A stretch of 54,773 bases of DNA from Candidatus Peribacteria bacterium (GTDB lineage: Bacteria; Patescibacteriota; Gracilibacteria; Peribacterales; Peribacteraceae), in assembly GCA_028286915.1 (NCBI GenBank), contig JAQBQQ010000041.1:1-54773 (forward strand), given 5' to 3'. The notes beneath the pieces were generated by a model. That model was not told where the DNA came from. It did no database searches and worked only from the letters and a program-made list of their open reading frames with translations. Below, piece after piece: positions 835 to 27,384 of the stretch (its first letter is position 1; each line of letters starts with the position of its first letter). A program made the position numbers and the translations under genes.

Positions 835-983
835 ACGGATTTCGGACGGTTTACTCTCACGTATACCTGCCGTCAACTGTTCCGTTCAAGATACATACAA
901 AAAGCCTACTTATACTCATATGTAAGCCATAAACCACATTAACACCGCAGTCTTGTCTTTAGGTACTTGACCTCAGGTGTACA

Positions 984-2048: not shown

Positions 2049-2157
2049 AGAGAGCTTTTATGGAAAAGCAGGCAAATAGTACGGCAATATCGGCATCCAT
2101 TCAAAGCAAAGTAAAGCCATTGGTATTATCAATAACGCATTGCGTAATCCACGTCCT

Positions 2158-2721: not shown

Positions 2722-3977
2722 TTGCCTATGGAGGTAAGAACTTTGCGGCGCTGTCGTTCCAGAATGGCGCCCATCATCATAATCAGCAGTCCGCCCAGTA
2801 TAAAAGCCACCGAACGGTAGCGCATTTGTAATGCCCAGGAGAAATACTGAATAAAGATGGCAACAGCAACGGCAAACATGCCGGTATTAATAAGAACCGG
2901 CAAACGGAGTTGTGTGCCGTACCAGATAATGACCAGGAAAAAGACAAAAGCCAGAAGTACATGCACGGCATACAGCAGCTGAAATGTTGATATAGTCTGT
3001 GCAGTCGTGGCAAAATCAACATACGTAGTCCCCGTGTAACCCTCAGGAAAACCTCGGAGAACAGGCAGATATGCAAGAATATATATGAATGTCACATACA
3101 GACCGAGTGCCAGCAAGCCCCACTTACCCTGAGCCGTTTCAAATCTGCCATACAGAAAAGCCAGGCACAGCAATGCGGCGGCTGCCACTGCCATAACAAT
3201 GTTCAAGGTGTCCTGTTGGAAGCGTAAAAACGGGAAGAACACTTCTTTGTCGATAGTGGAAATAACCACTACCAGTGTGACCAGAAATATTCCCCAGTGG
3301 AAGAGTGTCTTGGCACCAAACCGCATATACTTCCAGCGCGGCAAAAGCAAACCGGCACTTACCAGACCGGTGCCAATAACGGGCAGCATGGTAAGAATGC
3401 TGTAATTGGACTGAAACAGAAAATCAAACTCACCAGAGCCGCCGACCATGGAAGACCGGAGCCAGCCAAGGAAAAGAATAAGCAACGGAACAGATGTCCA
3501 GAGGTGCAAACGCGACTGCAAAATGACGGCAAAAAGAAGTGTCCCCAGAAACCATAGCAATGCACCCCACCAGAAGGTAAGCGGCAGATGATATATTTGC
3601 GCCACCAGGAAAATACCGGCGCCAAAGATCAGAATGTTTACAAAGAGTAATGCCAAACCGCTCTTTTCATATTTACCGGTTTCGAATGCGAAGTAATACC
3701 CTGCCACGCCGGTTGTCACCATTCCGGCCATAAGAATAGCCACTTTCATAACCGGCGTGAGCACGCTCCAGTTGCTTCCCACAAAAAGGATGACTCCGAG
3801 GCCAACGAGAATGGCGCCAACCGCAGAAAAAATACTGATAGCCCGGTGAGACATATCTTCGTTCCTTTCTTCGGCAATAAGGCCCGGCGGCAGACTGTCC
3901 ACCAGCTCCATGGCTTTCTTTTTGGTAAGCTTTTTCTCCTTTACCCAGTATGCCAGCGCCTGCTCAATGGTTATCAT
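2718..3977 (-). CDS. DUF2157 multi-pass membrane protein
   Basis: 419 residues from the second ATG. The N-terminal soluble helical part (MITIEQALAYWVKEKKLTKK) is followed by many hydrophobic segments from about residue 47 onward (GAILVGLGVILFVGSNW is the DUF2157 hallmark). An upstream ATG at 3986 exists, but it lies inside a TATTAT hexamer (3990-3985) that sits exactly 7 nt before the ATG at 3977. The promoter therefore argues for 3977 and a leaderless mRNA. The gene overlaps the GDYXXLXY gene by 4 nt. The pairing of the two families is common in bacteria; their role is unknown, possibly membrane-associated sensing or maintenance. Confidence 0.88.
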   Translation of the reverse strand: MITIEQALAYWVKEKKLTKKKAMELVDSLPPGLIAEERNEDMSHRAISIFSAVGAILVGLGVILFVGSNWSVLTPVMKVAILMAGMVTTGVAGYYFAFETGKYEKSGLALLFVNILIFGAGIFLVAQIYHLPLTFWWGALLWFLGTLLFAVILQSRLHLWTSVPLLILFLGWLRSSMVGGSGEFDFLFQSNYSILTMLPVIGTGLVSAGLLLPRWKYMRFGAKTLFHWGIFLVTLVVVISTIDKEVFFPFLRFQQDTLNIVMAVAAAALLCLAFLYGRFETAQGKWGLLALGLYVTFIYILAYLPVLRGFPEGYTGTTYVDFATTAQTISTFQLLYAVHVLLAFVFFLVIIWYGTQLRLPVLINTGMFAVAVAIFIQYFSWALQMRYRSVAFILGGLLIMMMGAILERQRRKVLTSIGK

Positions 3978-3984
3978 TGGCACC

Positions 3985-3990
3985 ATAATA
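3985..3990 (-). promoter_or_regulatory. -10 element of the DUF2157 operon
   Basis: TATTAT on the minus strand, followed by 7 nt and the ATG at 3977. It contains the alternative upstream ATG, which would then not be transcribed. This is part of the leaderless pattern seen across the window. Confidence 0.55.
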
Positions 3991-4143
3991 GCGATTTATT
4001 AGGAAATTTGAATTGCACTTATTTCCTATGGATGTTTGTTCGTTGGTTCGTTATTGGTTTATGGTTACAGGCGATAAACGAACCAACCAAAAACCAATAA
4101 ACAATTGCAAATATGGCATATATTAGAGCAAAATACCGCCCCT

Positions 4144-5241
4144 ATGAAAATACTCGTTGCATTATCGGGTGGAATTGATTCTTCCGTGGTTGCTCATTTG
4201 CTCCATGAACAGGGCCATGAGCTGATTGGTGTCCGTTTTACGCTGTGGACGGATCCGCTGGCGCCGGCTTTGGCCGATATTCTGCCAAGCAAATGCTGTA
4301 ACGCGCAGACTGCTTACCGCACCCGTATGGTTGCCGATGCATTGAACATACCGCTTCATATTGTATCCTTTGAAGATGAGTTTAAGAAAAATGTGGTAGA
4401 CCCGTTCCTGGAAGACCACAAAAAAGGACTGACACCCAACCCGTGCATAAACTGCAACCGCACCATGAAGTTTGGAAAATTACTGGAGCTGATGGAAGAA
4501 TACGGCTGTGAAAAACTGGCGACCGGCCATTATACGCGTGTAGCCAGAGAAACAGTAAACGACGGAACCGACCGCATGATTTTGCTTGAGGCACTGGACG
4601 GGCCAAAAGACCAGAGTTATTACCTGTACGGGCTGGGGCAGAATCAATTACAAAAAGTGATGTTCCCGTTGGGAGGAATGCACAAAGAAGAAGTATTCGC
4701 ACTGGCGAGGCATTATAACATTCCGTTTGATGAATATTATAAAGAAAGCCAGGACTTGTGTTTCTTCCCGGAAAAAACACCACAGGAATTTTTGAAACGT
4801 CATTTAACAGATGCAATCCAGCCGGGACACATTATCCGCCGCGATGGAACAGTTGTCGGCAGCCACAAAGGCTTGCCGCTGTATACAGTCGGCCAGCGCC
4901 ATGGCCTTGGTATTGGCGGGCTCAAGATTCCACTGGAAGTGGTGGCCAAAGATGCCAGTGCCAATACGCTGATTGTTACCGAGCAGCACAGCGAACTACT
5001 GCAGGATATTTCCCTCACCGAATTGCACTGGATATCCTGGGCACCCGTGCCGGACACACGCATTCCGTTTGAGTACCGGACGCGGTCGCTTTCCGCCCGC
5101 AAGCGCGGCTGGCTGAATTTTGACGGCAACAGTGCCCGCTTTACCTTTGAAAAGCCGGAACATCCGCAGGCATACGGCCAGTCTCTGGTGCTCTACCGAG
5201 GGGAAGAAATTGTCGGCGGAGGTGTTATGACCGCATCGTAG
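4144..5241 (+). CDS. mnmA: tRNA-specific 2-thiouridylase MnmA
   Basis: MnmA thiolates U34 of tRNA-Lys, -Glu and -Gln using ATP and a persulfide sulfur donor in the cytoplasm. From the ATG at 4144 the protein has 365 residues, the usual size. The PP-loop SGGIDSS is at 8-14. The two catalytic cysteines are C101 (TPNPCINCNR) and C206 (ESQDLCFF). GHYTRVAR and the C-terminal beta-barrel (VVGSHKGLPLYTVGQRHGLG) are typical. An in-frame ATG at 4105 would add 13 residues upstream of the PP-loop with no family support, so I prefer 4144. The gene stands alone, divergent from DUF2157. With trhO (27917) it gives the window two wobble-uridine modification enzymes. Confidence 0.96.
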   Translation: MKILVALSGGIDSSVVAHLLHEQGHELIGVRFTLWTDPLAPALADILPSKCCNAQTAYRTRMVADALNIPLHIVSFEDEFKKNVVDPFLEDHKKGLTPNPCINCNRTMKFGKLLELMEEYGCEKLATGHYTRVARETVNDGTDRMILLEALDGPKDQSYYLYGLGQNQLQKVMFPLGGMHKEEVFALARHYNIPFDEYYKESQDLCFFPEKTPQEFLKRHLTDAIQPGHIIRRDGTVVGSHKGLPLYTVGQRHGLGIGGLKIPLEVVAKDASANTLIVTEQHSELLQDISLTELHWISWAPVPDTRIPFEYRTRSLSARKRGWLNFDGNSARFTFEKPEHPQAYGQSLVLYRGEEIVGGGVMTAS

Positions 5242-5453
5242 GTTTACACCGGGATATTTCCATATTTTTACTGCAGCCCTGTTACTATTCTGCGGGTTTT
5301 TTTTATTTCACCCGGAAACACGACTACGTCATGATGCCGGAGTTTTAGTCTTATAAAGCGATAAAGTCCTTTTTTTGATATCAAAACCTATAAAACTGTC
5401 TATACAGTACAAATTAGGGAAGCATGATACTCGTAAAAGCGCTCATTTTCCGG
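5242..5453. other. Intergenic region with T-rich end
   Basis: About 210 nt between mnmA and the sortase. A GC-containing imperfect stem followed by eight T residues (around 5260-5308) could end mnmA transcription, but the pairing is weak. The remainder is AT-rich and leads to the sortase promoter. No ORF is convincing. Confidence 0.4.
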
Positions 5454-5459
5454 TATAAT
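5454..5459 (+). promoter_or_regulatory. -10 element of the sortase gene
   Basis: Perfect TATAAT, 12 nt before the sortase ATG, so the expected transcript has a leader of about five bases and no room for a Shine-Dalgarno. The -35 region (TCGTAA at the right spacing) is poor. Confidence 0.6.
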
Positions 5460-5471
5460 CTATAGATTTCC

Positions 5472-6632
5472 ATGAATAACCCGGCCCACTGGGCAACATA
5501 TGACGGCGACGGAAATGTGATCCTGCCAAAGGCGGAGAGCCTGCAACCACATGCCATGGAACCCAATACCTGGCACGCAGTAGAGAACACAACCATCACG
5601 GCATCCGCCAATGGCGAACATGTGAACTGGCAGACAACCACGATAATTGAAGAACATGTGTCCACCGTAAGCCGGGCAACACAGGAGATCTTCCGCGAAG
5701 GAGCGCATCAGTATTCTGTGAGCATACAGGCGGTTCCGGAAACCGTGCAGGAACTCCGCGGCGAAGTAAAAGGCGCCATGCAGTCCGTCTGGGGATTTCT
5801 TACACAACCGGTCTGGGTACCAACCCGCACAAAAAAAGTGAAGCAATACAGCCGCATGAGCTTATTTTTTCTGGATATTCTGCGCTTCGGCGGAACATTC
5901 ACGCTTATCTTTGTTGTACTGTTCGTGGCACTCAACTACCAGAGCTTCTGGCAGATTGCCTCGGCACGGCTGGCGCCCTTTCTGGAAAATCCGTCCATGG
6001 ATAGTGCCGGGCAGAAACTGCAACAGGATATGCCATGGCTGGACAAAGAAAAGCGGGCCGAAGGAAATCTACTCAGCTTTCTGCCGCCGGTCGGGCCACC
6101 GCAAAACCGGATGATTATTCCAAAGCTGAACCTGAATGTCCCGCTTATCAACCCGTCCACTGCCGCGCTGATCAATCAAAATTGGGATCAGGTGGAAAAA
6201 GATATTCAGCATGGCCTGCAGGAAGGCGTGGTGCATTACCCCGGCACGGCCAAAGCCGGACAGGCCGGTAACTTCTTTATTACCGGACACAGCTCGTATT
6301 ACCCATGGGACCCAGGCAGATATAAAACCGTATTCGCACGGCTGCAGGAGCTGAATGTCGGCGATGAATACACTGTGTATTACAACGGTGACCGGCACCG
6401 TTACATTGTAGATACTAAAAAAGAAGTCAAACCGTCGGATGTTTCCGTTCTGGATCAGCCGGCCGACAAGCGCATTTCCACTCTTATGACCTGCACGCCG
6501 GTTGGCACCACGCTCCGCCGCCTCATTCTTGTTTCCCGTGAAGTGGATCCGCTTACGGGCGAAACCATGGCAGTGGGACAACAGCCACGCGAGGAGCAGA
6601 GAGCAGCGCCACTCCAGGCATTACCAATTTAG
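5472..6632 (+). CDS. Sortase family transpeptidase with long cytoplasmic N-terminus
   Basis: 386 residues. Sortases cleave C-terminal sorting signals and attach proteins to the cell surface. One transmembrane helix (about 134-155, LDILRFGGTFTLIFVVLFVA) separates an unusual ~130-residue N-terminal region from the extracytoplasmic catalytic barrel. Catalytic residues are visible: H273 (FITGHSSY), C341 in the signature STLMTCTP, and R349 or R350 (TTLRRLIL). The MTCTP context is like class D/E sortases, but I cannot assign the class firmly. No classical LPxTG substrate is adjacent. The proteins at 22159 and 23494 end in sorting-signal-like tails and are candidate substrates. The TAG stop is the first part of a G-quadruplex-like tract. 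Confidence 0.92.
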   Translation: MNNPAHWATYDGDGNVILPKAESLQPHAMEPNTWHAVENTTITASANGEHVNWQTTTIIEEHVSTVSRATQEIFREGAHQYSVSIQAVPETVQELRGEVKGAMQSVWGFLTQPVWVPTRTKKVKQYSRMSLFFLDILRFGGTFTLIFVVLFVALNYQSFWQIASARLAPFLENPSMDSAGQKLQQDMPWLDKEKRAEGNLLSFLPPVGPPQNRMIIPKLNLNVPLINPSTAALINQNWDQVEKDIQHGLQEGVVHYPGTAKAGQAGNFFITGHSSYYPWDPGRYKTVFARLQELNVGDEYTVYYNGDRHRYIVDTKKEVKPSDVSVLDQPADKRISTLMTCTPVGTTLRRLILVSREVDPLTGETMAVGQQPREEQRAAPLQALPI

Positions 6633-6657
6633 GGTTTGGGTTAGGGTTAGGGTTGGG
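6632..6657 (+). repeat. Telomere-like G-rich tract, predicted G-quadruplex
   Basis: Five runs of three G (6632-34, 6638-40, 6644-46, 6650-52, 6655-57) separated by TTT, TTA, TTA and TT. The first G is the last base of the sortase stop codon. A C-rich complementary-like stretch (about 6706-6730, CTAATCCTAACCCC) follows 50 nt later, so the RNA could fold either as a quadruplex or as a long imperfect stem. Confidence 0.7.
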
Positions 6658-6737
6658 TTATCATATGTATGATCAAGCGTTTTGATTAAGAATAAGTGGT
6701 AATCTTAACCTTATTCCTAATCCTAACCCCTTCATCA

Positions 6738-6826
6738 GCCGCTATGGTGGAAAGGTAGACACGGGGGACTTAAAATCCCCTGCCCATAAACCGGGCGTCT
6801 CGGTTCGATCCCGAGTAGCGGCACCA
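6738..6826 (+). tRNA. tRNA-Leu (anticodon UAA)
   Basis: Cloverleaf read by eye. The 7-bp acceptor stem GCCGCTA/TAGCGGC closes it, the anticodon loop is CTTAAAA within a GGGGA/TCCCC stem, there is a long class II variable arm, and the T-arm contains GGTTCGATCC. CCA is encoded (6824-6826). The class II variable arm and TAA anticodon make it leucine. It borders an AT-rich accessory islet on its 3' side. Confidence 0.97.
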
Positions 6827-6884
6827 CGTAAAATCGCGCAGTGAGATTTTACGTGCCACGTGACGGCGCAGCCGTTTTACGTGG
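6825..6884 (+). repeat. Tandem hairpins directly after tRNA-Leu
   Basis: Stem 1 is a perfect 11-bp inverted repeat (CACGTAAAATC at 6825-6835 with GATTTTACGTG at 6845-6855) that borrows the last two bases of the tRNA CCA. Stem 2 (6856-6884) has CCACGT/ACGTGG outer arms and ACGGC/GCCGT inner arms. GCGCAG recurs in both loops and again just downstream with ACGTGG at about 6901-6910. There is no T-run, so it is not a standard terminator; it looks like a small palindromic repeat cluster. Confidence 0.7.
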
Positions 6885-6940
6885 CTGATATGGCGCGATC
6901 ACGTGGCGCAGCCATCTACATCAAACTACAATATTCTACT

Positions 6941-7210
6941 ATGCATCACGTTTACGTCATTGAAAGTATAGAAAGCCAAAAGCGATATATCGGCTATACT
7001 ACCGATCTCCGGCGCAGGCTGGGTGAGCATAACGCTCACAAAAATATTTCAACCGCAAAAGAATCAGCCTGGAAACTTATCTACTGTGAAACGTATGTAA
7101 ATAAAATGGATGCGCTTGGGCGAGAGAAATTTTTAAAAAGTGGCTCAGGTTGGAGATTTTTAAAAAAGCAGCTTCGATATTATTTTGAGGAAGGTACAAT
7201 CAAATCATGA
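6941..7210 (+). CDS. GIY-YIG single-domain nuclease
   Basis: 89 residues from ATG 6941. YVIES followed by KRYIGYTTDLRRRLGEHN is the GIY-YIG core with the conserved Arg. The C-terminal REKFLKSGSGWRFLKKQ matches the short UvrC-like stand-alone family. Such proteins are predicted DNA endonucleases and often mobile; the cellular role of these short forms is unknown. I reject the longer upstream extension because it reads through the tRNA-proximal hairpins. The stop TGA overlaps the ATG of the next, truncated gene (ATGA). Confidence 0.85.
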   Translation: MHHVYVIESIESQKRYIGYTTDLRRRLGEHNAHKNISTAKESAWKLIYCETYVNKMDALGREKFLKSGSGWRFLKKQLRYYFEEGTIKS

Positions 7211-7326
7211 AACTCATATTCCTTTATGGGCCTCCCGCCGTCGGCAAGCTCACTGTTGCTAAAGAGCTTTCAAAGCTGACAGATTTCAAAATTTCCGAGC
7301 ATTCTGCATCGGCTGTGCTTGGCTGA
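7207..7326 (+). pseudogene. Truncated P-loop kinase (AAA-type nucleoside/shikimate-kinase-like)
   Basis: A 39-codon frame starts at an ATG overlapping the GIY-YIG stop. It opens with MKLIFLYGPPAVGKLTVAKE, a Walker A motif (GPPAVGKLT) at residues 8-16 typical of small P-loop kinases of about 170-190 residues. After LTDFKI the family pattern is lost and TGA follows at 7324-7326. No continuation in another frame is recognisable downstream, so this looks like the 5' remnant of a deleted gene. The ATGA overlap suggests it was once coupled to the nuclease gene. Confidence 0.7.
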
Positions 7327-7512
7327 ACTCGAACGTCGGACGAGTCTGTGCCAGCTGTGAATAACCCCGAGCCCAAATTATGCGGAGCCTCTTTATGGAA
7401 GAGCGAAGGCAAATCCCGATCTGCAAACGATACTGAGCATCACCGTACCGAGATTTGAGTGCAGGGATCTGAAACGTCCGCCTGATCTATACCCTGCCTG
7501 CATGTTAAACAA
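7327..7512. other. Intergenic remnant region
   Basis: About 185 nt between the truncated kinase and a convergent membrane gene. A short hairpin (ACTCGAACGTCGGACGAGT, from about 7327) is the only structure seen; no ORF is convincing. Probably eroded sequence. Confidence 0.35.
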
Positions 7513-7875
7513 TTAATACAACATAAGAATCGCTGGAAGCATTGCTAATACGGGCAATGCAAGAATAATGCAAAAAATACTATCGAGAAGTATGAAGCGT
7601 TTCGATTTCATATATTTGTAAAATATTCCGTTCAGGATAGTGAATAACGTCGCGTTAAATACCGCTAATATTATTATTCCTGTGTGTGGCCCAATCAACT
7701 CTGATAGCGGAAGGAAGCCTGATAGAGGCACCAAGAGAATCATTGCTGGAAGATTCAAGAAAAGAGCAAAGTCTCTTGCTACGAATGTACTGACAACCGA
7801 ATAAGCCACACCAAACATCACCCCAATAAGGATGCCGGGACGTTTAGTTATCTCAAGAATTAATCTATCGTACAT
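7513..7875 (-). CDS. Hypothetical four-helix membrane protein
   Basis: 120 residues, very hydrophobic, with about four transmembrane segments (ILIGVMFGVAYSVVSTFVA; LPAMILLVPLSGFLPL; TGIIILAVFNATLFTILNG; DSIFCIILALPVLAMLPAIL) and a basic KYMKSKR loop. I do not recognise the family. It lies in the AT-rich islet after tRNA-Leu. The ATG at 7875 has no clear Shine-Dalgarno. Confidence 0.6.
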   Translation of the reverse strand: MYDRLILEITKRPGILIGVMFGVAYSVVSTFVARDFALFLNLPAMILLVPLSGFLPLSELIGPHTGIIILAVFNATLFTILNGIFYKYMKSKRFILLDSIFCIILALPVLAMLPAILMLY

Positions 7876-7908
7876 ACGCCCAATTTAGTGTATTTTATAT
7901 ATAGTAAC

Positions 7909-7966
7909 AACGTAAATTTAACGTTCGTGACTGCTTGCAGTCGCCTCCTGAATCATGATCAGGAGG
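7909..7966. repeat. Cluster of three perfect hairpins
   Basis: Three adjacent inverted repeats: AACGT-n7-ACGTT (7909-7925), GACTGC-TT-GCAGTC (7929-7942) and CCTCCTGA-n7-TCAGGAGG (7944-7966). They lie just upstream of the minus-strand membrane gene at 7875. No T-tract follows, so a terminator role is doubtful; a folded RNA or protein-binding array is possible. Confidence 0.65.
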
Positions 7967-8004
7967 AGCAAGATTTAGGACAGCGCTTTTGTCAAATTGA
8001 TGGC

Positions 8005-8256
8005 TCACATACTACGATCATTTGTCGATTGCTTGTGGAGAACACGAAAGCCGATGACAGCGATAAGGCCACTCGCCAGAGCGATAAAGCTATTCGACTC
8101 AAGGACGCTCTTGGTGTCTTCGAATCTCGATCCGCTGAAAATACCAGCAATCATAGCAATTGAAGCAGGTAATGATTCATTGAAATAAATCGCCCTTCTC
8201 GTATGGAGGTTTACACACCAAAAGATATGATCTCTGGCGACCCATACCATCATCAT
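8005..8256 (-). CDS. Doubtful small membrane ORF
   Basis: 83 codons on the minus strand. The second half (SNSFIALASGLIAVIGFRVL) could be a membrane helix, but the N-terminal part is encoded by a repeat that recurs at 8929-8972, and competing frames exist on the other strand. It could be a gene remnant with a repeat at its 5' end. I include it only as a weak candidate. Confidence 0.25.
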   Translation of the reverse strand: MMMVWVARDHIFWCVNLHTRRAIYFNESLPASIAMIAGIFSGSRFEDTKSVLESNSFIALASGLIAVIGFRVLHKQSTNDRSM

Positions 8257-8263
8257 AGGTCAT
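8220..8263. repeat. Dispersed repeat, copy 1
   Basis: About 44 bp (AAAAGATATGATCTCTGG then CGACCCATACCATCATC) that recurs with small changes and short indels at 8929-8972. Copies are about 700 bp apart in the same orientation and bracket the gene at 8324-8797. Confidence 0.7.
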
Positions 8264-8323
8264 TTGAGTGATTAACTACGATGAGGCAAATTTAGTCGAA
8301 CTGCTCCGCATTGTTAAAGTTCA

Positions 8324-8797
8324 TTACTCTTCGAGAATCGGTATATCTTTCGGCAGATTTCTTTCTGGCTCATAGATAGTAAAAATCTTCCCATCAGGAC
8401 TTGTGGCTTCAAAAGTGTAGTAGCATTCGGGACCCCCAGCACTTCGAAAGGAAAGTTTTGTTCCAGTCTTCAATAGATGTAATCCCCATCGAATGTCTTT
8501 CGCCAAAGTGAAGTCCATTGGATAGTCGCCAGCAAATGAAATGTTTATTGTTCTGTAGTTACTCGTTTGCTCAGCACCGGTGAATTCGGATGGAGGTTGA
8601 GAGGAAAGCGTTGCAATACTTTCTCGCAGACTTTGAATATAACTCACTACCTTTAAATCTGTTACTGGCAGTCCCTCATGCATCATAAAATTGAATGCAT
8701 TTAGTGTTCCTTCATTCAGCAATCTTTTATTTTCCCCGTCTTCTATATCAAATCCTTCCGGAATTAATTGCTGACTAATTTTGTCAAGATTAGACAT
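8324..8797 (-). CDS. Hypothetical cytoplasmic protein flanked by direct repeats
   Basis: 157 residues with no recognisable family. No membrane segment or signal is visible. The central part alternates beta-like segments (TINISFAGDYPMDFTLAKD, TKLSFRSAGG, YYTFEATSPDGKIFTIYEPE), suggesting a small alpha/beta fold. It is flanked on both sides by copies of a ~44-bp direct repeat. Upstream DNA (about 8815-8860) is a long run of TATA-like sequence that could hold its promoter. Confidence 0.6.
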   Translation of the reverse strand: MSNLDKISQQLIPEGFDIEDGENKRLLNEGTLNAFNFMMHEGLPVTDLKVVSYIQSLRESIATLSSQPPSEFTGAEQTSNYRTINISFAGDYPMDFTLAKDIRWGLHLLKTGTKLSFRSAGGPECYYTFEATSPDGKIFTIYEPERNLPKDIPILEE

Positions 8798-8928
8798 AGA
8801 TAATGAGGTAAATTATATTATATATTATACACTTTATATATATTATAGCAAATTATCTCTGTGTTTTTACCAAAGAAGTTCTAATATGGGTGTAGTCCCG
8901 AATAGACGCTATGTCCAATTCAACCATC

Positions 8929-8972
8929 AAAAGATATGATCTCCGGTGACCCGTACTACCATCATGTGTCAT
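8929..8972. repeat. Dispersed repeat, copy 2
   Basis: Second copy of the element at 8220-8263 (AAAAGATATGATCTCCGG then TGACCCGTACTACCATC). Differences are point changes plus a 2-nt and a 3-nt indel. Confidence 0.7.
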
Positions 8973-9011
8973 CAGAAATCATAACTCTCCTATCTTTCAT
9001 TGCCTTACAAA

Positions 9012-9500
9012 ATGACTGTTCAAAACTTAAGTCGGTTCCATCGGCTTGGTAAATGGTACCTACTCCTGTCGGCAATACTTTTTCAATGTGTTCTGGTTTT
9101 CTTTGTCTTGTCACACCTTTCTTTGCCTCTTTTTTCAGAAAAAGGATATTTTCTGTACGCATCAAAACATGTGTATCCGCAAAATGCCCGATTACTTTTT
9201 CGCGGTTCGGTATCAAGCTTCGGCGGACTGAATGAAATCTATGTTTTTAGCGCTCCATCGGAATGGATACAGTCCCTTCTGCATAGTGAACCCTGGCCAG
9301 GTGCAAAATGGGAGTGGATTGATGTTACAGGTGACGGAAAATTCGGAACATGTTCGTTGCCGGATGAAAATGACGAACGCGCACTGAAAGTACTTATTCC
9401 ACCGGGTCATTATCGCTATGCCAAGAAAAATGACGATTTCATAAAAGAATTTATTATCAACGAGCAGACTGGATTAGTCATGATGTGTGCCAGTGATTAA
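9012..9500 (+). CDS. Hypothetical single-pass membrane protein
   Basis: 162 residues from ATG 9012 (a TTG at 9000 is also in frame). One helix near residues 18-38 (LLLSAILFQCVLVFFVLS) is followed by an extracytoplasmic domain with an Asp/Gly-rich stretch EWIDVTGDGKFGTCSLPDEND that resembles a calcium-binding loop. I do not recognise the family. The end overlaps the long form of the next ORF, but the likely start of that gene (9511) is 10 nt downstream. An 84-codon antisense ORF over the 5' part is rejected. Confidence 0.6.
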   Translation: MTVQNLSRFHRLGKWYLLLSAILFQCVLVFFVLSHLSLPLFSEKGYFLYASKHVYPQNARLLFRGSVSSFGGLNEIYVFSAPSEWIQSLLHSEPWPGAKWEWIDVTGDGKFGTCSLPDENDERALKVLIPPGHYRYAKKNDDFIKEFIINEQTGLVMMCASD

Positions 9501-20655: not shown

Positions 20656-21624
20656 CTACCGGGCTGACAGTGCCGAACTCCGGATAATAAACTGATCAAT
20701 CAGACATACTAATTCCTCCGGCGCTTCCTGGGTTGACTTGTAGCCACCGGTTTTAAGTTCTATATCGGTTGCCACGGCCCAGCGTATAAAATTTTCCATG
20801 TGAGCGCGCCTGGCCGAGGATACAAACGGCAGCAGCGATTTTACGGATGGAAACGGCACGCCGTATTCACTGGCAATGGTTGCGGGATTTTTTATGCCAT
20901 CCTGTACCGCTACAAAAACCAGAAACGTGTTCTTCAGCATCCATAGTAAAATACTCCACAGTGAATAGGCATCTTCACCGCGCGTGAGTAATAACTGCGC
21001 ATACTGCAGTGCATCATTTTTTTTGCCGGCAGCAATGGTGTTGGTGAGTGTCCACACTTCCTGCTCACCCGAAGGAACGGCAAGAATATCCACATGTTTC
21101 ACCTCAATACTATCGCCGGCATAGAGCTGTATTTTATCCAACTCCTGGGACAGTGCATCCTGATCCTCACCGACGATTTCCAGTAATCTGTTCTGGGCTG
21201 CCGGCTGTATTGTTTTTCCGTTTGCCTGTACATATTGCTGCATCCATTGTTTTAGTTGTCCGGGCGCAATGGGCGGAAACTCTTTGACGGTTGCAATCTT
21301 CAAAAGGGATTTAGTACTGCTAAGCCGCTTGTCGGGCTTGGGATCAATAAAAAGTAACAGGCAATCCGGATGCACGCTTTCCGGCAGTACTTCCATCTCC
21401 TCCTTGGAGTAAGCCGGAATACCGGTGACAATTAATAGACGCTTGCCGGCAATGAACGGCAGTGCGCTTACTTCATCCAATAAAGAATGAAAACTTAATC
21501 CTTTTCCATCCAGGCGCTGTAAATTCTCCTGGCCGTGCTTCTGGCTGAATTCCCGCATCCATTTGTGCTTTTCCTGGCGCAGGGCATAACTGTTTTCGCC
21601 GGTAAAAAGGAAGATTGTGGACAT
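20656..21624 (-). CDS. holA: DNA polymerase III subunit delta
   Basis: The delta subunit opens the sliding clamp within the clamp loader. 322 residues from ATG 21624. Domain I begins IFLFTGENSYALRQEKHKW and continues GKRLLIVTGIP and LLLFIDPKPDKR. Domain II is LKQWMQQYVQANGKTIQPAA to GEDQDALSQELDKIQLYAG, characteristic of HolA, and domain III includes WSILLWMLKNTFLVF. The ATG is 8 nt after a TATACT (21638-21633); longer in-frame starts upstream of it are rejected. Confidence 0.92.
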   Translation of the reverse strand: MSTIFLFTGENSYALRQEKHKWMREFSQKHGQENLQRLDGKGLSFHSLLDEVSALPFIAGKRLLIVTGIPAYSKEEMEVLPESVHPDCLLLFIDPKPDKRLSSTKSLLKIATVKEFPPIAPGQLKQWMQQYVQANGKTIQPAAQNRLLEIVGEDQDALSQELDKIQLYAGDSIEVKHVDILAVPSGEQEVWTLTNTIAAGKKNDALQYAQLLLTRGEDAYSLWSILLWMLKNTFLVFVAVQDGIKNPATIASEYGVPFPSVKSLLPFVSSARRAHMENFIRWAVATDIELKTGGYKSTQEAPEELVCLIDQFIIRSSALSAR

Positions 21625-21746
21625 GCAGTATGAGTATAGGCAATAAAGAGGAGAAATAGAAGAATCCAGCACTATACTTCATAGAAAGGAACGAGTGTGA
21701 CGAACGCCGTAAGGCGAAAGACATGCATAGTCAAATAAACTAATTA

Positions 21747-21800
21747 TAGTATACGTCAACAGCATGGGAATTGAGGAAAAGTGCAAAATGACGTATACTA
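21747..21800. promoter_or_regulatory. Perfect inverted repeat framing the dockerin promoter
   Basis: TAGTATACGTCA (21747-21758) and TGACGTATACTA (21789-21800), perfectly complementary 12-mers separated by 30 nt. The right arm contains the -10 hexamer and the left arm lies upstream of the -35. This is the layout of a repressor or activator binding pair, possibly looping. Confidence 0.65.
21771..21799 (+). promoter_or_regulatory. Sigma-70 promoter of the dockerin-cohesin operon
   Basis: TTGAGG (21771-21776), an ideal 17-nt spacer, then TATACT (21794-21799). Only 8 nt separate the -10 from the ATG, so the start site falls within a base or two of the start codon. Confidence 0.7.
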
Positions 21801-21807
21801 ATAGGAA

Positions 21808-22155
21808 ATGTCCACACACACATTCCCTTTCATCGCCAAAGTAACCAAGCTTACCGTCTTCGGTACAGCGTGCATTCTTGGATCATTTTACATGGGAGCA
21901 CAAACAACCAGTGATGTTTCCACGCACGTAAGCGGCTCTGCCAGCGCACTGGAGGCATCCCTCATTCCGACAGACACGGCAATGCCAGCCGATACCGGAC
22001 ACGGCACCGGCCGCATTGGTAAAGCTGCGTCTATTCTTCGTGTTGTAACCGGTCATGAACCGCTGCCGGAACACTGGCAGGATCTTGACTCTAACCATGA
22101 CGGAGTTATTGACGCCAATGATGCACTCGTCATTCTGGAAACACTCACACGGTAA
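21808..22155 (+). CDS. Secreted dockerin-like protein
   Basis: 115 residues. N-terminal hydrophobic segment (VTKLTVFGTACILGSFYMGA, signal or anchor), a Ser/Thr/Ala-rich linker, then a dockerin-like C-terminus. One intact calcium-binding F-hand (DLDSNHDGVIDANDALVILE, residues about 92-111) is preceded by a degenerate partner (GTGRIGKAASILRVVTG) that lacks the Asp/Asn ligands. Dockerins bind cohesins, and the very next gene encodes a cohesin-like domain. First gene of a three-gene run (3-nt and 9-nt gaps) behind a promoter framed by an inverted repeat. Confidence 0.75.
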   Translation: MSTHTFPFIAKVTKLTVFGTACILGSFYMGAQTTSDVSTHVSGSASALEASLIPTDTAMPADTGHGTGRIGKAASILRVVTGHEPLPEHWQDLDSNHDGVIDANDALVILETLTR

Positions 22156-22158
22156 GCC

Positions 22159-23484
22159 ATGATACACAACCGCTTTCTCCGCCGGCAGACCATGTTCTTC
22201 GTAGCGTCTCTTCTGCTATCGCTTTATCCGGATGCAGGCATGGCGCAACAGGCACGCGGGCTCCTTATTTTCCGTCCTCACTGCGAAAACCCTATTCAAA
22301 CGAATTGTCCGGCTTTTAATGTTCTGGACCCGCGCACACTGCAGACACCTGTTCTAGCGGTTGGCGATACACTGGATATGGATATTGTTTTCCAGAATGT
22401 ATCGCTGGACCCGGTCCACGAATTCCGGGTTTGGATTGCCTATGACCCCGATGTACTGGAAGGGGCGGGACTGAAACTCAATGGTAAATTTCCAGTCCCC
22501 TACCCGGACGAAACCGATTTCTATCCCAAAGACGGCGTGGCAAAAATACGCGCCGGCAGAGAAGGCACCAGCGTAAATGGCGCCAACATTCCGTTTGCAC
22601 GCATTGTCTTTACGGTAAAAAAAGCAGGAACTGCCGGCATCAGCATTCTAAGTCTGGATACGACTGGCGCACCCGATACACATACCTACGTGCGCAAAGG
22701 GACAGCCGCAACCGATAATCTTCTGGCCGCGGAACAGGGATCTCTTCAGCTGCGTTTGCAGGAAGGAAGTGCCAGCTCCGTAACCTCCACAAGCTCTTCA
22801 TCTTCTCCCGGCTCCGGCAGTGCACCTGCACAAAGCGGTAGCGGAAATGTGTCGTCTCATATTTCATCTACGGATGTATCTTCTTCATTTTCTTCATCCG
22901 GCATTCCCGCTTTTCCCACAACCACACCAACAACGACACTGCCGCCTGTCGCCGTACCCGCGCCGCAGCCATCGCCTGCTCCGCCATCCCGCACGACATT
23001 TTCCCTGCTGCAGGTTCAAAATCTTCGGGCCGGCACAGACGGAACAACGGTCTACCTTACCTGGGACCGCCTCACATCATCTGAACTTGTGGGATATAAT
23101 GTCTATTACGGCACACGAACCGGTGAATATATCCAGCGCAAAGAAGTTCTGCCGGATGCCATCTCTTTGGCGCTGCGCAATCTTCCGGCTGGCACCACCT
23201 ATTTTATAGCCATCCGGGGCGTGAATAGCTCCGGCGAGGAAACGGCATTCAGCAAAGAAGCATCACTCATCGTTGGTGACGGCCGCAGTTCCACATCGCC
23301 ACTTGCAGGAAGCGTGACAGGCACCCGCAAGAATCCTGTTACCAAAGGAAACGGAAGCGGCGCAAAAACAGTGCCCGGCGAGACGGGCGCGCCTGCAATC
23401 ATCCTTATGATCGCGCTGTGTGCAGCCATACTCAGCACCCTGGTGTTTCTTAAGCGTTTCAAAGGTTTTACCGCCTTAAGTTAA
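22159..23484 (+). CDS. Cohesin-like/FN3 surface protein with sorting-type tail
   Basis: 441 residues. Signal peptide (about 10-29, QTMFFVASLLLSLYPDAGMA). A cohesin-like beta-sandwich follows at about 55-195 (LAVGDTLDMDIVFQNVSLDP, FRVWIAYDPDVLEG, IPFARIVFTVKKAGTAGIS). Then come a long Ser/Pro linker (about 200-275), a fibronectin type III domain (about 280-372; TVYLTWDRLTSSELVGYNVY, LRNLPAGTTYFIAIRGVNSS), and a C-terminal tail PGETGAP + hydrophobic helix + KRFKGF. That tripartite tail resembles a sortase signal. Probably displays the cohesin at the surface to hold the upstream dockerin protein. Confidence 0.8.
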   Translation: MIHNRFLRRQTMFFVASLLLSLYPDAGMAQQARGLLIFRPHCENPIQTNCPAFNVLDPRTLQTPVLAVGDTLDMDIVFQNVSLDPVHEFRVWIAYDPDVLEGAGLKLNGKFPVPYPDETDFYPKDGVAKIRAGREGTSVNGANIPFARIVFTVKKAGTAGISILSLDTTGAPDTHTYVRKGTAATDNLLAAEQGSLQLRLQEGSASSVTSTSSSSSPGSGSAPAQSGSGNVSSHISSTDVSSSFSSSGIPAFPTTTPTTTLPPVAVPAPQPSPAPPSRTTFSLLQVQNLRAGTDGTTVYLTWDRLTSSELVGYNVYYGTRTGEYIQRKEVLPDAISLALRNLPAGTTYFIAIRGVNSSGEETAFSKEASLIVGDGRSSTSPLAGSVTGTRKNPVTKGNGSGAKTVPGETGAPAIILMIALCAAILSTLVFLKRFKGFTALS

Positions 23485-23493
23485 CACATAACT

Positions 23494-24471
23494 ATGGATC
23501 TTCATCCGCATTGGGACTCGGCCGGCACGCAGGAACATGCTTCTCCAAAAGTATCCGTTCCCATTTTGCCGGATACAGCCGAGGCAGACATGCCACTTTC
23601 CGCCATACACAACACCCATGCATCCTTTGCCATCTCGCGACGGCCGGCCGCCATTACCGGCATTGCCATTGCTCTCACGCTGGGCCTTACCTACTGGCAC
23701 GGCTGGGATATGCTGAGCGATATTCCATTGCCATCACTGTCTTCCATTACCGGACAATTATTTGCCGGCTCGTCTTCCAGCCAGGCTCCGGCAGTTCATA
23801 CCATTAAAATATCCGCCACCGGCGTTGATCCTCAATCTCTCATTCTCTCTGCCGGCGATACGATGACATTTGTGAATGCGACAGAAATCCCCCACATTAT
23901 CGAAATTCCTGAACTCAAAGGCAGCGACGGTGCATATATTACATCGCCGCCTATTTTCCCCGGCTCGCAGGAAGTTATCCAAATTCCGGCAGGTACCACG
24001 CCGGGCTTGTATACGTACACGTCATCCACGGATTCCAGCGTTACCGGACAAATTCTTATCCAGTCGAATGCACCGGCTACTACGCCATCTGCCACCACTC
24101 CTGTCTCTTCGGCTGGCGGGCTACCTGCATCGTCCACGGTATCATCTTCATTTTCCAGTGAAACAGTCGTACTAAGCGGCGGCATATCTTCCTCTTCTGA
24201 GATAGGCAATACAGCAGCTGATCCCCTGCCTCAAAACCCCTACACGTCCGGATCGGATATTCAGCATCCATTTGATGCCAGCGGACAGCCGATTGCCAGC
24301 CTGTTTAATAGCGACGGGTCGCTCAAAACTTCCACAACAGGCACACTGCACAGTGGCGCCGGACCACGACCGACAAAAACAACTGACAGCGGTCCACAGG
24401 CCTGGATTGCTTTACTGTTAAGCATTGGCGCATTCCTGTGGTTTTCCCAGTCGTACAAAGCTGTTCGCTAG
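23494..24471 (+). CDS. Membrane-anchored cupredoxin-fold protein
   Basis: 325 residues. An N-terminal cytoplasmic stretch and a helix (about 50-68, AITGIAIALTLGLTYWHGW) lead to a beta domain at about 98-190 (HTIKISATGVDPQSLILSAG, TMTFVNATEIPHIIEIPE, GLYTYTSSTDSSVTGQILI) with the cupredoxin pattern. The Cys and second His/Met copper ligands are missing, so it is probably not a copper site. A Ser-rich linker and a C-terminal tail TTDSGPQAWIALLLSIGAFL then basic residues follow, similar in layout to the tail of the previous gene. Third gene of the operon. Confidence 0.7.
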   Translation: MDLHPHWDSAGTQEHASPKVSVPILPDTAEADMPLSAIHNTHASFAISRRPAAITGIAIALTLGLTYWHGWDMLSDIPLPSLSSITGQLFAGSSSSQAPAVHTIKISATGVDPQSLILSAGDTMTFVNATEIPHIIEIPELKGSDGAYITSPPIFPGSQEVIQIPAGTTPGLYTYTSSTDSSVTGQILIQSNAPATTPSATTPVSSAGGLPASSTVSSSFSSETVVLSGGISSSSEIGNTAADPLPQNPYTSGSDIQHPFDASGQPIASLFNSDGSLKTSTTGTLHSGAGPRPTKTTDSGPQAWIALLLSIGAFLWFSQSYKAVR

Positions 24472-25094: not shown

Positions 25095-25583
25095 ATGACA
25101 CATACGCCGCAATCTCTTATGAAATCCATCCGTTCATCGCAGACAGCAAAGCCCGGCTTCACACTGGTGGAACTTCTTATGGTTATTTCCATCATGGGCA
25201 TTCTTGCTTTCCTCGTTTTTTCCGCCATCAATCCTTCCAGGCAACTCGGCAAAGCGCGTGACGCCCAACGCAAATCTGATGTTCTTACCATTCTCATCGC
25301 ATTCTACCAGTACTCACTGGATCACGATGGCACACGCCCGGTGCAACTTCCTCTGGGTGTGGCAAATGCAAAAGGCATATGTAAATCCAGTGACGCCGTT
25401 TGCAATAACGGCATGAACCTTCGCAGCCTCACGGGAACCTATATCGCCAACCTTCCTGTAGATGCCCACGCAGCCGAATCGGGTACCGGTACCAGCTATT
25501 ATATTTACGCCCAGAGCGACAATCGTATTACTGTTTTCGCCCCGCTTGCCGAACAGGAATTTCCTATTCAAGCCAGCCGCTAG
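25095..25583 (+). CDS. Type IV pilin-like (pseudopilin) protein
   Basis: 162 residues. Class III signal KPGFTLVELLMVISIMGILA: cleavage after Gly with Glu at +5, followed by the pilin hydrophobic helix. The periplasmic part has the usual KARDAQRKSDVLTILIAFYQ helix and two cysteines (CKSSDAVC) of a small disulfide loop. Needs prepilin peptidase and an assembly ATPase, neither in this window. MTHTPQ (25095) and MKSIRSS (25119) are both possible starts. Confidence 0.88.
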   Translation: MTHTPQSLMKSIRSSQTAKPGFTLVELLMVISIMGILAFLVFSAINPSRQLGKARDAQRKSDVLTILIAFYQYSLDHDGTRPVQLPLGVANAKGICKSSDAVCNNGMNLRSLTGTYIANLPVDAHAAESGTGTSYYIYAQSDNRITVFAPLAEQEFPIQASR

Positions 25584-25644: not shown

Positions 25645-26145
25645 ATGCCCGCACTTTCAACCAACCCTGCCTCATATCGTCTCAACCATACTGCCCAGCT
25701 ATTTCTGCTCGCTGCTATAATTGGCTATGTAGCATGCATTATGCTTGCCCTTCTTTTTCATCAGACAATTCTTGACGGTGCAGCCATGAGTCTTTTTGTT
25801 TTGAATCCTTTTCTGGTAACCATTTACCGCAAAAGGACATCACCCGCACACGCATTTCAATTGCAGCGCATGGTGGCACTATGCGCCGGCTATCTCCTGC
25901 TCGCCGTTATGCTCTGGACCGGCATCCTGTACATAGTTACCGATATCTGGAAGCCTGATCATTACGTCTACACCATGGGCATGCCGTCTGTGACAACAAA
26001 ATTTATATTGCTGTTGCAGTTGCAGCTGCCCTGGGCTGCAGCCGGGCTTGTTGCGTCCATTATTGTTGCCTTACTGCCGGCCAAATGGTTTATCAAAAAA
26101 AATATGCCGGTCATCACGGACACACCGGCGGCGGATTCGATGTAA
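25645..26145 (+). CDS. Hypothetical four-helix membrane protein
   Basis: 166 residues from ATG 25645. Four hydrophobic segments (LFLLAAIIGYVACIMLALLF; GAAMSLFVLNPFLVTIY; MVALCAGYLLLAVMLWTGIL; LPWAAAGLVASIIVALLP) with a basic YRKRTSP loop. No family recognised. Its last 32 nt overlap the 3' end of the convergent SLH-CAP gene, which is unusual in this otherwise loosely packed region. Confidence 0.65.
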   Translation: MPALSTNPASYRLNHTAQLFLLAAIIGYVACIMLALLFHQTILDGAAMSLFVLNPFLVTIYRKRTSPAHAFQLQRMVALCAGYLLLAVMLWTGILYIVTDIWKPDHYVYTMGMPSVTTKFILLLQLQLPWAAAGLVASIIVALLPAKWFIKKNMPVITDTPAADSM

Positions 26146-27286
26146 TAGCCGTATCGTAATGCGTGGTGACATAAAACGTACCTTCCACTGCATCTACGGC
26201 AACTCCCATGCCAATAGCAGTAAATTCCTTGTTCATAATACTATTGTAGTGCGGCCGGGACTGCTTATCTTTCTCGGACATGTATGAATCGAAAGTAGGA
26301 CGCAGTGCAGTCAGAAAATTTTTCGTACAGTCTGTCTTGTTGCAACGGTACATGCCCCAGCCAATATTCTCCGAAAATGTTACCTTGTTCCTGTTCTCGA
26401 ACGACAGTCCCAGCTTTTCAAACCATTGCGTGATAAGCGGATAATCATAATAGAGCGTTTGACCTTCACGCTTATGCGATATGGAACCTTTCTCTTCCGC
26501 CTGCTTGGACCAGATGAATGCCGTGCGGTTTAACTGCTTGTCATACATATATGGTTCCAGATCTTCTTCCATACGCGAGCTGTTTATCCAGGAAAGCCAG
26601 ACACGCCGCACCTCCTCCATATCCACGCCGGGAATAGTATCTTCGGTAAAATAGTCGCAGTTGGCGGCCAGCATGGTCTCCGGATCACTGGATGATTGCG
26701 AACGTACCTGCACTCTTAACCTCCAGATCATCTCTGCCACTTCGGAACGCGTAAGTGTGCTCTGCGGAGTTTCCACGGAGGGCGGAAACAAATGACGCTT
26801 CCCCATTGCCTGAATAACCGGCACATACCATTGCTCGTTTTTTTTGGCAGCTGGCATATGTATGGTAAATGCCCGGGCAAGTACTGCCGATGCTTCCGCC
26901 ACATTCACTTTCTGAGCCGGCAAAAATGTGCCGTCCGGGTTCCCTTCCACAAATTTCTCTTTCACGCCGGCACAGACAAAACGCGCATACCAGGCATTGT
27001 CCGGCACATCAGAAAATTCCTTGAACGTGGTACTCGTGCATTTTTTAAGAACGGATTCATCACCGGCCGCCAGTATGACGATTTTCGTAAACTCCGCCCG
27101 GCTGAGTGCGCGACCTGGCCGGAAGAGACCGTCGGCGTAACCGGACATTATGCCTTCTTTCTTTACATATTCGATAGCTGTCGCATGTGAATCACTCGCA
27201 GACACATCGGTAAATATCATGTCTTTTGCTGACGCAGCTGGTAACCATACAACAAGCAGCAAGCCAAGACCCATACGTACGTTCAT
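26114..27286 (-). CDS. SLH-CAP surface protein
   Basis: 390 residues from ATG 27286. A signal peptide (MGLGLLLVVWLPAASA) is followed by three SLH modules: about 22-75 (AIEYVKKEGIMSGYADGLFR), about 80-135 (VKEKFVEGNPDGTFLPAQK), and a shorter third to about 190. A CAP/SCP-like domain covers about 220-385 (FSENIGWGMYR, RPHYNSIMNKEFTAIGMGVA, FYVTTHYD) with the CAP His/Glu-type residues. Bacterial CAP proteins are extracellular, of varied or unknown function; SLH modules would tether it to the wall. A TGGTATGCT extended -10 lies 9 nt upstream of the ATG. Confidence 0.85.
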   Translation of the reverse strand: MNVRMGLGLLLVVWLPAASAKDMIFTDVSASDSHATAIEYVKKEGIMSGYADGLFRPGRALSRAEFTKIVILAAGDESVLKKCTSTTFKEFSDVPDNAWYARFVCAGVKEKFVEGNPDGTFLPAQKVNVAEASAVLARAFTIHMPAAKKNEQWYVPVIQAMGKRHLFPPSVETPQSTLTRSEVAEMIWRLRVQVRSQSSSDPETMLAANCDYFTEDTIPGVDMEEVRRVWLSWINSSRMEEDLEPYMYDKQLNRTAFIWSKQAEEKGSISHKREGQTLYYDYPLITQWFEKLGLSFENRNKVTFSENIGWGMYRCNKTDCTKNFLTALRPTFDSYMSEKDKQSRPHYNSIMNKEFTAIGMGVAVDAVEGTFYVTTHYDTAITSNPPPVCP

Positions 27287-27384
27287 AGAAACCACAGCAT
27301 ACCAACTATTGATTACTTTTGCTGAGGAATGCAGAAACTCATGGAGTAACCGTGCAGCTGAATGCAAGCAGATACGGCAAAAGA

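What the first reader, a model, noticed from the sequence alone, without database searches (positions are those of the whole stretch)
21808..24471. Three-gene dockerin / cohesin-FN3 / cupredoxin-like surface operon
A secreted dockerin-like protein with one intact F-hand, a surface protein with a cohesin-like domain and FN3, and a membrane-anchored cupredoxin-fold protein lacking copper ligands are encoded with 3-nt and 9-nt gaps. There are no cellulase modules. This looks like a minimal self-contained cohesin-dockerin pair for cell-surface display or attachment in a reduced-genome bacterium, not a cellulosome.
Basis: partly seen in the sequence, partly recalled or inferred. Interest (0 to 1): 0.75.

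Follow-up and report, generated by a model that had tools for sequence, protein, structure and literature searches.

The report
Stripped-down cohesin-dockerin cell-surface operon
A group of very small, uncultured bacteria almost universally keeps a three-gene unit that encodes both halves of a calcium-dependent protein clamp known from cellulose-degrading machines, here apparently tethered to the cell membrane, without enzymes and with no described role.

Summary
The window is from a Peribacteria (CPR) genome. Genes DOC (21808-22155), COH (22159-23484) and CUP (23494-24471) lie 3 and 9 nt apart. COH carries a cohesin and an FN3 domain (Pfam above cut-offs; AF2 plus Foldseek: top 50 PDB hits all cohesins). 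CUP has a cupredoxin fold with the copper Cys replaced by Ser. DOC is sub-threshold alone, but its orthologues are dockerins with two intact Ca loops; losing loop 1 is peculiar to this genome (31 of 32 keep both).

The triplet is a core locus of the family: DOC 70/74, COH 73/74, CUP 73/74 genomes; adjacent in 39 of 41 loci, next to holA in 41/41, behind a conserved promoter. In most genomes it holds the only detectable cohesin and dockerin. One early-branching relative and sister families have longer versions: Ig-like stalk proteins ending in dockerins, a lipoprotein cohesin, COH, CUP. So this is a shrunken non-cellulosomal cohesin-dockerin system.

Best reading: two membrane-tethered proteins clamp each other, Ca-dependently, in the envelope. 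Binding itself is untested, and function is inferred. I found no prior description. New variant of a known kind.

The parts
21771..21799 (+). Promoter TTGAGG-N17-TATACT; the -10 ends 8 nt before the DOC start codon, so the transcript would be leaderless or nearly so
   Evidence: In the window alone such a match is at chance level, but a -10 with at least 5 of 6 matches just before the DOC start is present in 30 of 32 orthologous loci against a shuffle mean of 3.4 and maximum of 8
21808..22155 (+). DOC: 115-aa dockerin-only protein with N-terminal membrane segment (residues ~6-27)
   Evidence: (E 5e-26 to the family profile)
21991..22023 (+). Degenerate first F-hand loop of DOC (DTGHGTGRIGK; position 12 Asp lost)
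   Evidence: 31 of 32 orthologues have a competent loop here
22087..22122 (+). Intact second F-hand calcium loop of DOC (DSNHDGVIDAND)
22159..23484 (+). COH: 441-aa cohesin-FN3 protein with signal peptide and C-terminal membrane anchor
22159..22245 (+). COH signal peptide (likely cleavage after AGMA)
   Evidence: sequence
22357..22671 (+). COH cohesin domain
   Evidence: Pfam; AF2 pLDDT mostly 90-98; Foldseek top 50 all cohesins
22771..22998 (+). COH Ser/Thr/Pro-rich linker between cohesin and FN3, variable in length and composition between relatives
23011..23259 (+). COH FN3 domain, part of the most conserved stretch of COH
   Evidence: Pfam; alignment
23371..23451 (+). COH C-terminal VPGETG motif and transmembrane segment followed by basic residues: membrane anchor, possibly a sorting signal
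   Evidence: conserved in A1; hydropathy; sortases in 40 of 40 genomes tested
23494..24471 (+). CUP: 325-aa protein with conserved N-terminal tail (LHPHW.S), TM1, apo-cupredoxin domain, Ser/Thr linker and C-terminal TM2
23788..24063 (+). CUP cupredoxin-fold domain without the type 1 copper Cys/His/Met
20656..21672 (-). holA (DNA polymerase III delta), divergent neighbour in 41 of 41 loci; a synteny marker, not part of the system

Best explanation
DOC, COH and CUP form one envelope complex of Peribacteria. COH is exported, keeps a C-terminal anchor in the cytoplasmic membrane and presents an FN3 stalk topped by a single cohesin. DOC is held to the same membrane by its N-terminal segment and presents a calcium-folded dockerin that plugs into that cohesin, so two membrane proteins of one cell are clamped together in cis. 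CUP, anchored at both ends, completes the complex and gives it a conserved, presumably cytoplasmic, N-terminal tail. The unit is a shrunken descendant of a longer Doc-Coh-Coh locus in which the dockerins sit at the tips of long Ig-like stalk proteins; in most Peribacteraceae only the clamp is left. SHOWN (by computation): domains, folds, calcium-ligand conservation, topology signals, operon and promoter conservation, evolution of the three genes as a unit, ancestral layout. INFERRED: that this DOC binds this COH, that the binding is in cis and calcium-dependent, that CUP is in the complex, and that the role is structural.
For: Cohesin and FN3 above Pfam cut-offs; cohesin fold by AF2 and Foldseek. 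DOC orthologues are dockerins, and calcium ligands are kept in both loops in 31 of 32. DOC 70/74, COH 73/74, CUP 73/74 family genomes; order DOC-COH-CUP in 39 of 41 loci; shared promoter. Outside this locus a Pfam dockerin is found in only 17 of 70 family genomes and a further (mostly partial) Pfam cohesin in only 7 of 70, at E <= 1e-3, so in most genomes the two have only each other. DOC and COH distances correlate after removing the holA signal (partial r 0.46; 0 of 300 permutations), whereas greA shows none. Early-branching G029 keeps DOC as a 565-aa protein with the same N-terminal anchor and C-terminal dockerin (tree). Both DOC and COH carry membrane segments.
Against: No interaction was measured, and the fused AF2 model (pTM 0.67) gives no interface score. 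The window's DOC has lost one loop, so its fold or affinity may differ. Genomes G038 and G039 keep COH and CUP without a detectable DOC, so COH has some role without it. The DOC membrane segment is weak and could be a cleaved signal peptide. COH and CUP tails may be cut and attached to the wall by sortase. Co-divergence of operon partners can arise from shared inheritance without contact.
Confidence: 0.52

Rival explanations
1. COH is a general surface receptor for secreted dockerin proteins, in the manner of a cellulosomal anchoring scaffoldin, and DOC is a small occupant or regulator of the site. The real cargo is encoded elsewhere, for example the 444-aa secreted dockerin protein on contig C5 of this genome.
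For: This genome has a further two-loop dockerin protein without a membrane anchor, and 17 of 70 family genomes have extra dockerin proteins, up to 10 matches in one. The ancestral locus couples cohesins with long dockerin-tipped proteins.
Against: 53 of 70 genomes have no Pfam-detectable dockerin outside the locus, yet COH is kept, and DOC is kept with it with conserved calcium sites.
Confidence: 0.22
2. The clamp works in trans: DOC on one cell binds COH on a neighbouring cell, or one of them binds a partner on a host cell, giving adhesion or aggregation.
For: Peribacteria are predicted to be at best semi-independent (PMC4736985); in a related patescibacterium a dockerin protein is essential for growth as an epibiont (PMC10633639). 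FN3 and Ig-like stalks resemble adhesins.
Against: DOC is a short protein (about 85 residues outside the membrane) in most members, too short to reach far from the surface. Both genes are in the same operon of the same cell.
Confidence: 0.13
3. DOC is a calcium sensor of EF-hand type that does not bind COH; the triplet is a calcium-responsive signalling or envelope-stress unit acting through the cytoplasmic tail of CUP.
For: Window DOC scores as weakly for EF-hand families as for Dockerin_1. CUP has a conserved N-terminal W-x-[ST] tail across the class.
Against: Among orthologues Dockerin_1 is the best and commonest family (15 of 32, best 1.7e-8, against 9 and 1.6e-5 for EF-hand_1); the architecture lacks the entering helix, as in dockerins; a cohesin is encoded next door in nearly every genome.
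Confidence: 0.08

Closest known systems
Non-cellulosomal cohesins: Archaeoglobus fulgidus cohesin (PDB 2xdh) and the cohesin-FN3 double module of Clostridium perfringens GH84C (PDB 2w1n)
   Same: Cohesin fold outside a cellulosome (Foldseek E 4.7e-6 and 1.0e-5); 2w1n also shows a cohesin next to an FN3 domain.
   Different: There the cohesin is part of an enzyme or a large exoprotein; here it stands on a membrane-anchored, enzyme-free protein and is encoded next to a dockerin-only protein.
Cellulosomal type I cohesin-dockerin pairs and anchoring scaffoldins (ScaC/ScaB 4uyp, CipA 1ohz, OlpA 3ul4, ScaE 2zf9)
   Same: Same two folds, F-hand calcium loops, cohesin held at the cell surface.
   Different: A single cohesin, no cellulose-binding or catalytic module in the triplet, a dockerin without cargo, and a membrane tether on the dockerin itself.
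Essential dockerin-domain protein SEML1_0315 of Southlakia epibionticum (PMC10633639)
   Same: Dockerin-domain envelope protein in a patescibacterium, essential in a transposon screen; that paper proposes glycan binding.
   Different: Different class; its gene neighbours were not checked here, and no cohesin is mentioned in the paper.
Plastocyanin/amicyanin (cupredoxins)
   Same: Fold of the CUP extracellular domain.
   Different: Type 1 copper site lost (Cys to Ser); bound to the membrane at both ends; the domain is absent from CUP in some relatives.
Stalk-dockerin plus tandem-cohesin loci of other Patescibacteria (found here)
   Same: Same kit of parts, same gene clustering.
   Different: They keep long TIG/Ig/FN3-like dockerin proteins and two separate cohesin proteins; the window locus has one of each, shortened.

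Membership tests
Cohesin (PF00963) | Sequence profile above the curated cut-off | tested here: met
   29.3 bits against 24.1; 41 of 70 family genomes also over the cut-off
Cohesin (PF00963) | Nine-strand jelly-roll cohesin fold | tested here: met
   AF2 model; Foldseek: first 50 PDB hits all cohesins, best E 7.1e-8 with TM-score 0.71 on the target
Cohesin (PF00963) | Binds a dockerin | not testable with these tools
   No complex prediction or assay available; fused-chain model gave no interface score
Dockerin type I (PF00404) | Profile above cut-off | tested here: inconclusive
   Window DOC 14.3 bits against 22.9; orthologous DOC over the cut-off in many relatives, up to 37.1 bits
Dockerin type I (PF00404) | Two F-hand calcium loops | tested here: not met
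   Window: loop 2 intact, loop 1 lost; both intact in 31 of 32 orthologues. The window protein is a degenerate dockerin; the family meets the feature
Cellulosome | Scaffoldin with several cohesins and a cellulose-binding module | tested here: not met
   Single cohesin, no carbohydrate-binding module in COH; only one full Pfam cohesin in the genome
Cellulosome | Dockerin-bearing glycoside hydrolases | tested here: not met
   DOC carries no enzyme; the one other Pfam dockerin protein of the genome has no enzyme domain above cut-off. Whole-genome CAZyme survey not done
Non-cellulosomal cohesin-dockerin pair | Cohesin and dockerin encoded together outside a cellulosome | tested here: met
   39 of 41 loci
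Non-cellulosomal cohesin-dockerin pair | The two bind each other | not testable with these tools
   Indirect only: exclusivity in most genomes, evolution as a unit
Cupredoxin | Cupredoxin fold | tested here: met
   Profile E 1.2e-8 to plastocyanin; Foldseek E 1.3e-8 to amicyanin
Cupredoxin | Type 1 copper ligands His, Cys, His (Met) | tested here: not met
   Only the first His remains in the window; Cys is Ser in 26 of 30
Sortase substrate | LPxTG-like motif, hydrophobic segment, basic tail | tested here: inconclusive
   COH VxGx[TS]G and CUP xPx[TS]G[PA] followed by a membrane segment and basic residues; sortases present in 40 of 40 genomes; not canonical LPxTG

The most novel reading that the evidence does not exclude
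A dedicated non-cellulosomal cohesin-dockerin envelope system is an old and widespread trait of Patescibacteria: dockerin-tipped stalk proteins plus two membrane-tethered cohesins. It is retained by almost every Peribacteraceae as a stripped-down clamp of a 110-aa dockerin, a cohesin-FN3 protein and an apo-cupredoxin protein, and serves a core envelope function (cell-surface architecture or contact with a host) that has nothing to do with polysaccharide degradation.
Probability: 0.42. Interest if true: 0.8.

Novelty: new variant of a known kind. Interest (0 to 1): 0.62.

Why it matters
Cohesin-dockerin binding is among the strongest protein contacts known and is studied almost only in cellulose-degrading machines. 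A lineage of reduced-genome bacteria that keeps one cohesin and one dockerin, alone, in most of its genomes points to a different and more basic use of this contact in a cell envelope. It gives a concrete, small, testable target (two soluble domains of about 60 and 175 residues) for the open question of how CPR bacteria build their surface and hold on to partners, and it puts a structural hypothesis next to the report that a dockerin protein is essential in a cultivated patescibacterium.

Tried and rejected
Cellulosome: rejected (one cohesin, no CBM or enzyme in the triplet). Copper protein or electron carrier for CUP: rejected, ligands replaced; the whole cupredoxin domain is missing from CUP in genus g7 and a few others. 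One intact F-hand as the design of the system: rejected, it is a loss in this genome only. Promoter scan of the window alone: at chance level; only the comparison of 32 loci made it meaningful. NCBIfam: no hit for any of the three proteins. Rfam: only two tRNAs in the window. Co-folding of the pair: attempted by reading DOC and COH, which are in one frame, through the stop as one chain with a 60-row partly paired alignment; it confirmed the cohesin but the tool returns no inter-domain error, so it says nothing firm on binding. Literature: full-text searches of the open library for cohesin or dockerin with Peribacteria, Peregrinibacteria, Patescibacteria, Saccharibacteria, Microgenomates and CPR found no description of this locus; papers outside that library were not searched.

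Full report
CHECK OF THE OBSERVATION. The three ORFs, their coordinates and the gaps of 3 and 9 nt are as stated. Pfam puts a cohesin (29.3 bits, cut-off 24.1) and an fn3 domain (32.6, cut-off 25) in the 441-aa protein, here COH; the 115-aa protein, DOC, and the 325-aa protein, CUP, hit Dockerin_1/EF-hand and Cupredoxin_1 only below cut-off. Family alignments settle both: the DOC profile finds cellulosomal dockerins in the PDB at E about 5e-6, 15 of 32 orthologues hit Dockerin_1 (best 1.7e-8), and the CUP profile finds plastocyanin at E 1.2e-8.

FOLDS. DOC and COH happen to be in one reading frame, so I read them through the stop codon as one chain (window 21979-22770) and predicted it with a 60-row alignment of relatives. 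Mean pLDDT was 84.6; most of the cohesin part was 90-98. Foldseek against the PDB returned cohesins for all of the first 50 hits, best 4uyp_A, E 7.1e-8, TM-score 0.71 on the target. The CUP model has a cupredoxin domain at pLDDT 95-98 and matches amicyanin and plastocyanin. The copper Cys is Ser in 26 of 30 relatives; the first His persists in 16 of 30, the window included.

WHO CARRIES IT. The genome (1.43 Mb, 48 contigs) belongs to the Peribacteria; named relatives are Candidatus Peribacteria, Peribacteraceae and Peregrinibacteria MAGs. In the same family COH is found in 73 of 74 genomes, DOC in 70 of 74, CUP in 73 of 74. The order DOC-COH-CUP is adjacent in 39 of 41 inspected loci (37 by script, plus L066 and L068, whose split COH hit hid the DOC seen), always beside a divergent holA (41 of 41). 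Exceptions: G038 and G039 lack DOC, and G029 has a longer form. At E <= 1e-3 a Pfam dockerin outside the locus occurs in only 17 of 70 genomes, and a Pfam cohesin outside it in 7 of 70, mostly as partial matches (my count from the listed places). The window genome is one of the 17: a 444-aa secreted two-loop dockerin protein lies on contig C5.

ANATOMY. DOC: N-terminal membrane segment, a short conserved stretch (SFxxGIxTAGDVxP), then a dockerin and nothing else. Calcium ligands of both loops are competent in 31 of 32 orthologues; only the window has lost loop 1. COH: signal peptide ending AGMA, invariant Cys42 and Cys50, cohesin, variable Ser/Thr/Pro linker, FN3, a VxGx[TS]G motif, membrane segment and basic tail; the FN3-to-tail part is the most conserved. 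CUP: N-terminal tail (LHPHWxSTDD), TM1, cupredoxin domain (lost in genus g7 and a few others), Ser/Thr linker, NPYTVGS motif, xPx[TS]G[PA] motif, TM2, basic tail. The C-terminal tails of COH and CUP resemble sorting signals, and all 40 family genomes tested encode sortases, five in this genome, one of them in the window at 5472-6629. Whether these tails are membrane anchors or sortase signals is open.

PROMOTER. A -10 hexamer sits 8 nt before the DOC start codon in most loci: 30 of 32 have at least 5 of 6 matches within 3 to 15 nt, against a mean of 3.4 and maximum of 8 in shuffles, often with a TTGAGA-like -35 at 17 nt. The three genes are therefore probably one unit with a leaderless or nearly leaderless transcript. 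This is inferred from sequence; no transcript data were available.

WHERE IT COMES FROM. Other families of the class have a related locus: a 1300-1700-aa protein with Ig-like domains ending in a dockerin half, a ~195-aa lipoprotein cohesin, a COH orthologue (profile-profile E 1e-64) and a CUP orthologue without cupredoxin (E 1.2e-7 over the C-terminal part; shared N-terminal W-x-[ST] tail). G029, the first branch of the family in the COH tree (split of G029 plus outgroup from the rest supported at 99), has five genes: a 565-aa DOC orthologue with the same N-terminus and a C-terminal dockerin around a long insert, a 1320-aa Ig/TIG protein ending in one F-hand, a lipoprotein cohesin, COH and CUP. 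The simplest history is that most Peribacteraceae lost the insert of DOC, the long stalk protein and the second cohesin. Farther out in the phylum, 109 of 381 genomes have a Pfam cohesin (E <= 1e-4), and several loci read stalk with C-terminal Dockerin_1, N-anchored cohesin, C-anchored cohesin. I did not test whether those are orthologous.

DO THE PAIR BELONG TOGETHER? Indirect evidence: adjacency, near-exclusivity, and correlated divergence. The partial correlation of DOC and COH distances given holA is 0.46 (0 of 300 permutations as high), and about zero for each against greA. Genes of one operon can show this without contact. No interface score and no binding datum exist.

MECHANISM. Most likely a cis clamp: two proteins tethered in one membrane joined by a calcium-dependent cohesin-dockerin contact, with CUP as third member that reaches the cytoplasm. 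Rivals are a receptor for other dockerin proteins, a trans adhesion pair and a calcium sensor; confidences are given in the fields. The loss of one loop in this genome leaves a single possible binding face, where the relatives could use either of two (inference from the known dual-binding mode of type I dockerins).

KNOWN OR NEW. The folds and the kind of contact are known, non-cellulosomal cohesins included (2xdh, 2w1n). The Peribacter genome paper mentions neither cohesin nor dockerin, though it reports sortase, S-layer proteins and type IV pili (PMC4736985); the CPR protein-family paper mentions neither (PMC6744442). A dockerin-domain protein is essential in Southlakia and was proposed to target host glycans (PMC10633639). 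I found no paper describing this locus in the open library searched.

VERDICT. It is a lineage-wide, shortened, non-cellulosomal cohesin-dockerin operon of unproven function. New variant of a known kind; interest 0.62.

Noticed in passing
window 21771-21807 and orthologous loci: A consensus-like promoter whose -10 ends 8 nt before the start codon is conserved over the family, suggesting leaderless transcription; a conserved GTCAA lies upstream and may belong to the divergent holA promoter.
   Followed up: partly
L222 (G029:C21:4000-18000), 826-9037 minus strand: Five-gene ancestral-looking form of the locus: two dockerin proteins (565 and 1320 aa), lipoprotein cohesin, COH, CUP.
   Followed up: yes
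L202-L209, L217 (other Patescibacteria): Stalk proteins ending in Dockerin_1 next to two tandem cohesin genes, one anchored at the N-terminus and one at the C-terminus; looks like a phylum-wide theme.
   Followed up: partly
L225 5216-7581 (contig C5 of the window genome): 444-aa secreted protein with a two-loop dockerin, followed by a 140-aa lipoprotein cupredoxin with a CxxxC..H-type copper site (YCTIPCGPGHDSM).
   Followed up: partly
window 5472-6629: Sortase about 16 kb upstream of COH; in many relatives a sortase lies 8-19 kb from COH on the same contig, so the linkage is old.
   Followed up: partly
CUP in genus g7 (L050, L055, L056, L063, L065) and in L040, L222: The cupredoxin domain is missing while the N-terminal tail, the membrane segments and the C-terminal motifs stay, so the cupredoxin is the dispensable part.
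   Followed up: partly
N-terminus of CUP and class-wide orthologues (alignment A6): A cytoplasmic W-x-[ST]-x-x-[DE] tail is conserved over very diverged families; its partner is unknown.
   Followed up: no
G038 and G039 (genus g21; L223): COH and CUP kept, DOC not detectable: a natural test of whether COH works without DOC.
   Followed up: no
window 25095-25583 and 26114-27367: Prepilin-like protein (N_methyl) and an SLH-CAP surface protein just downstream; other envelope genes near the triplet.
   Followed up: no
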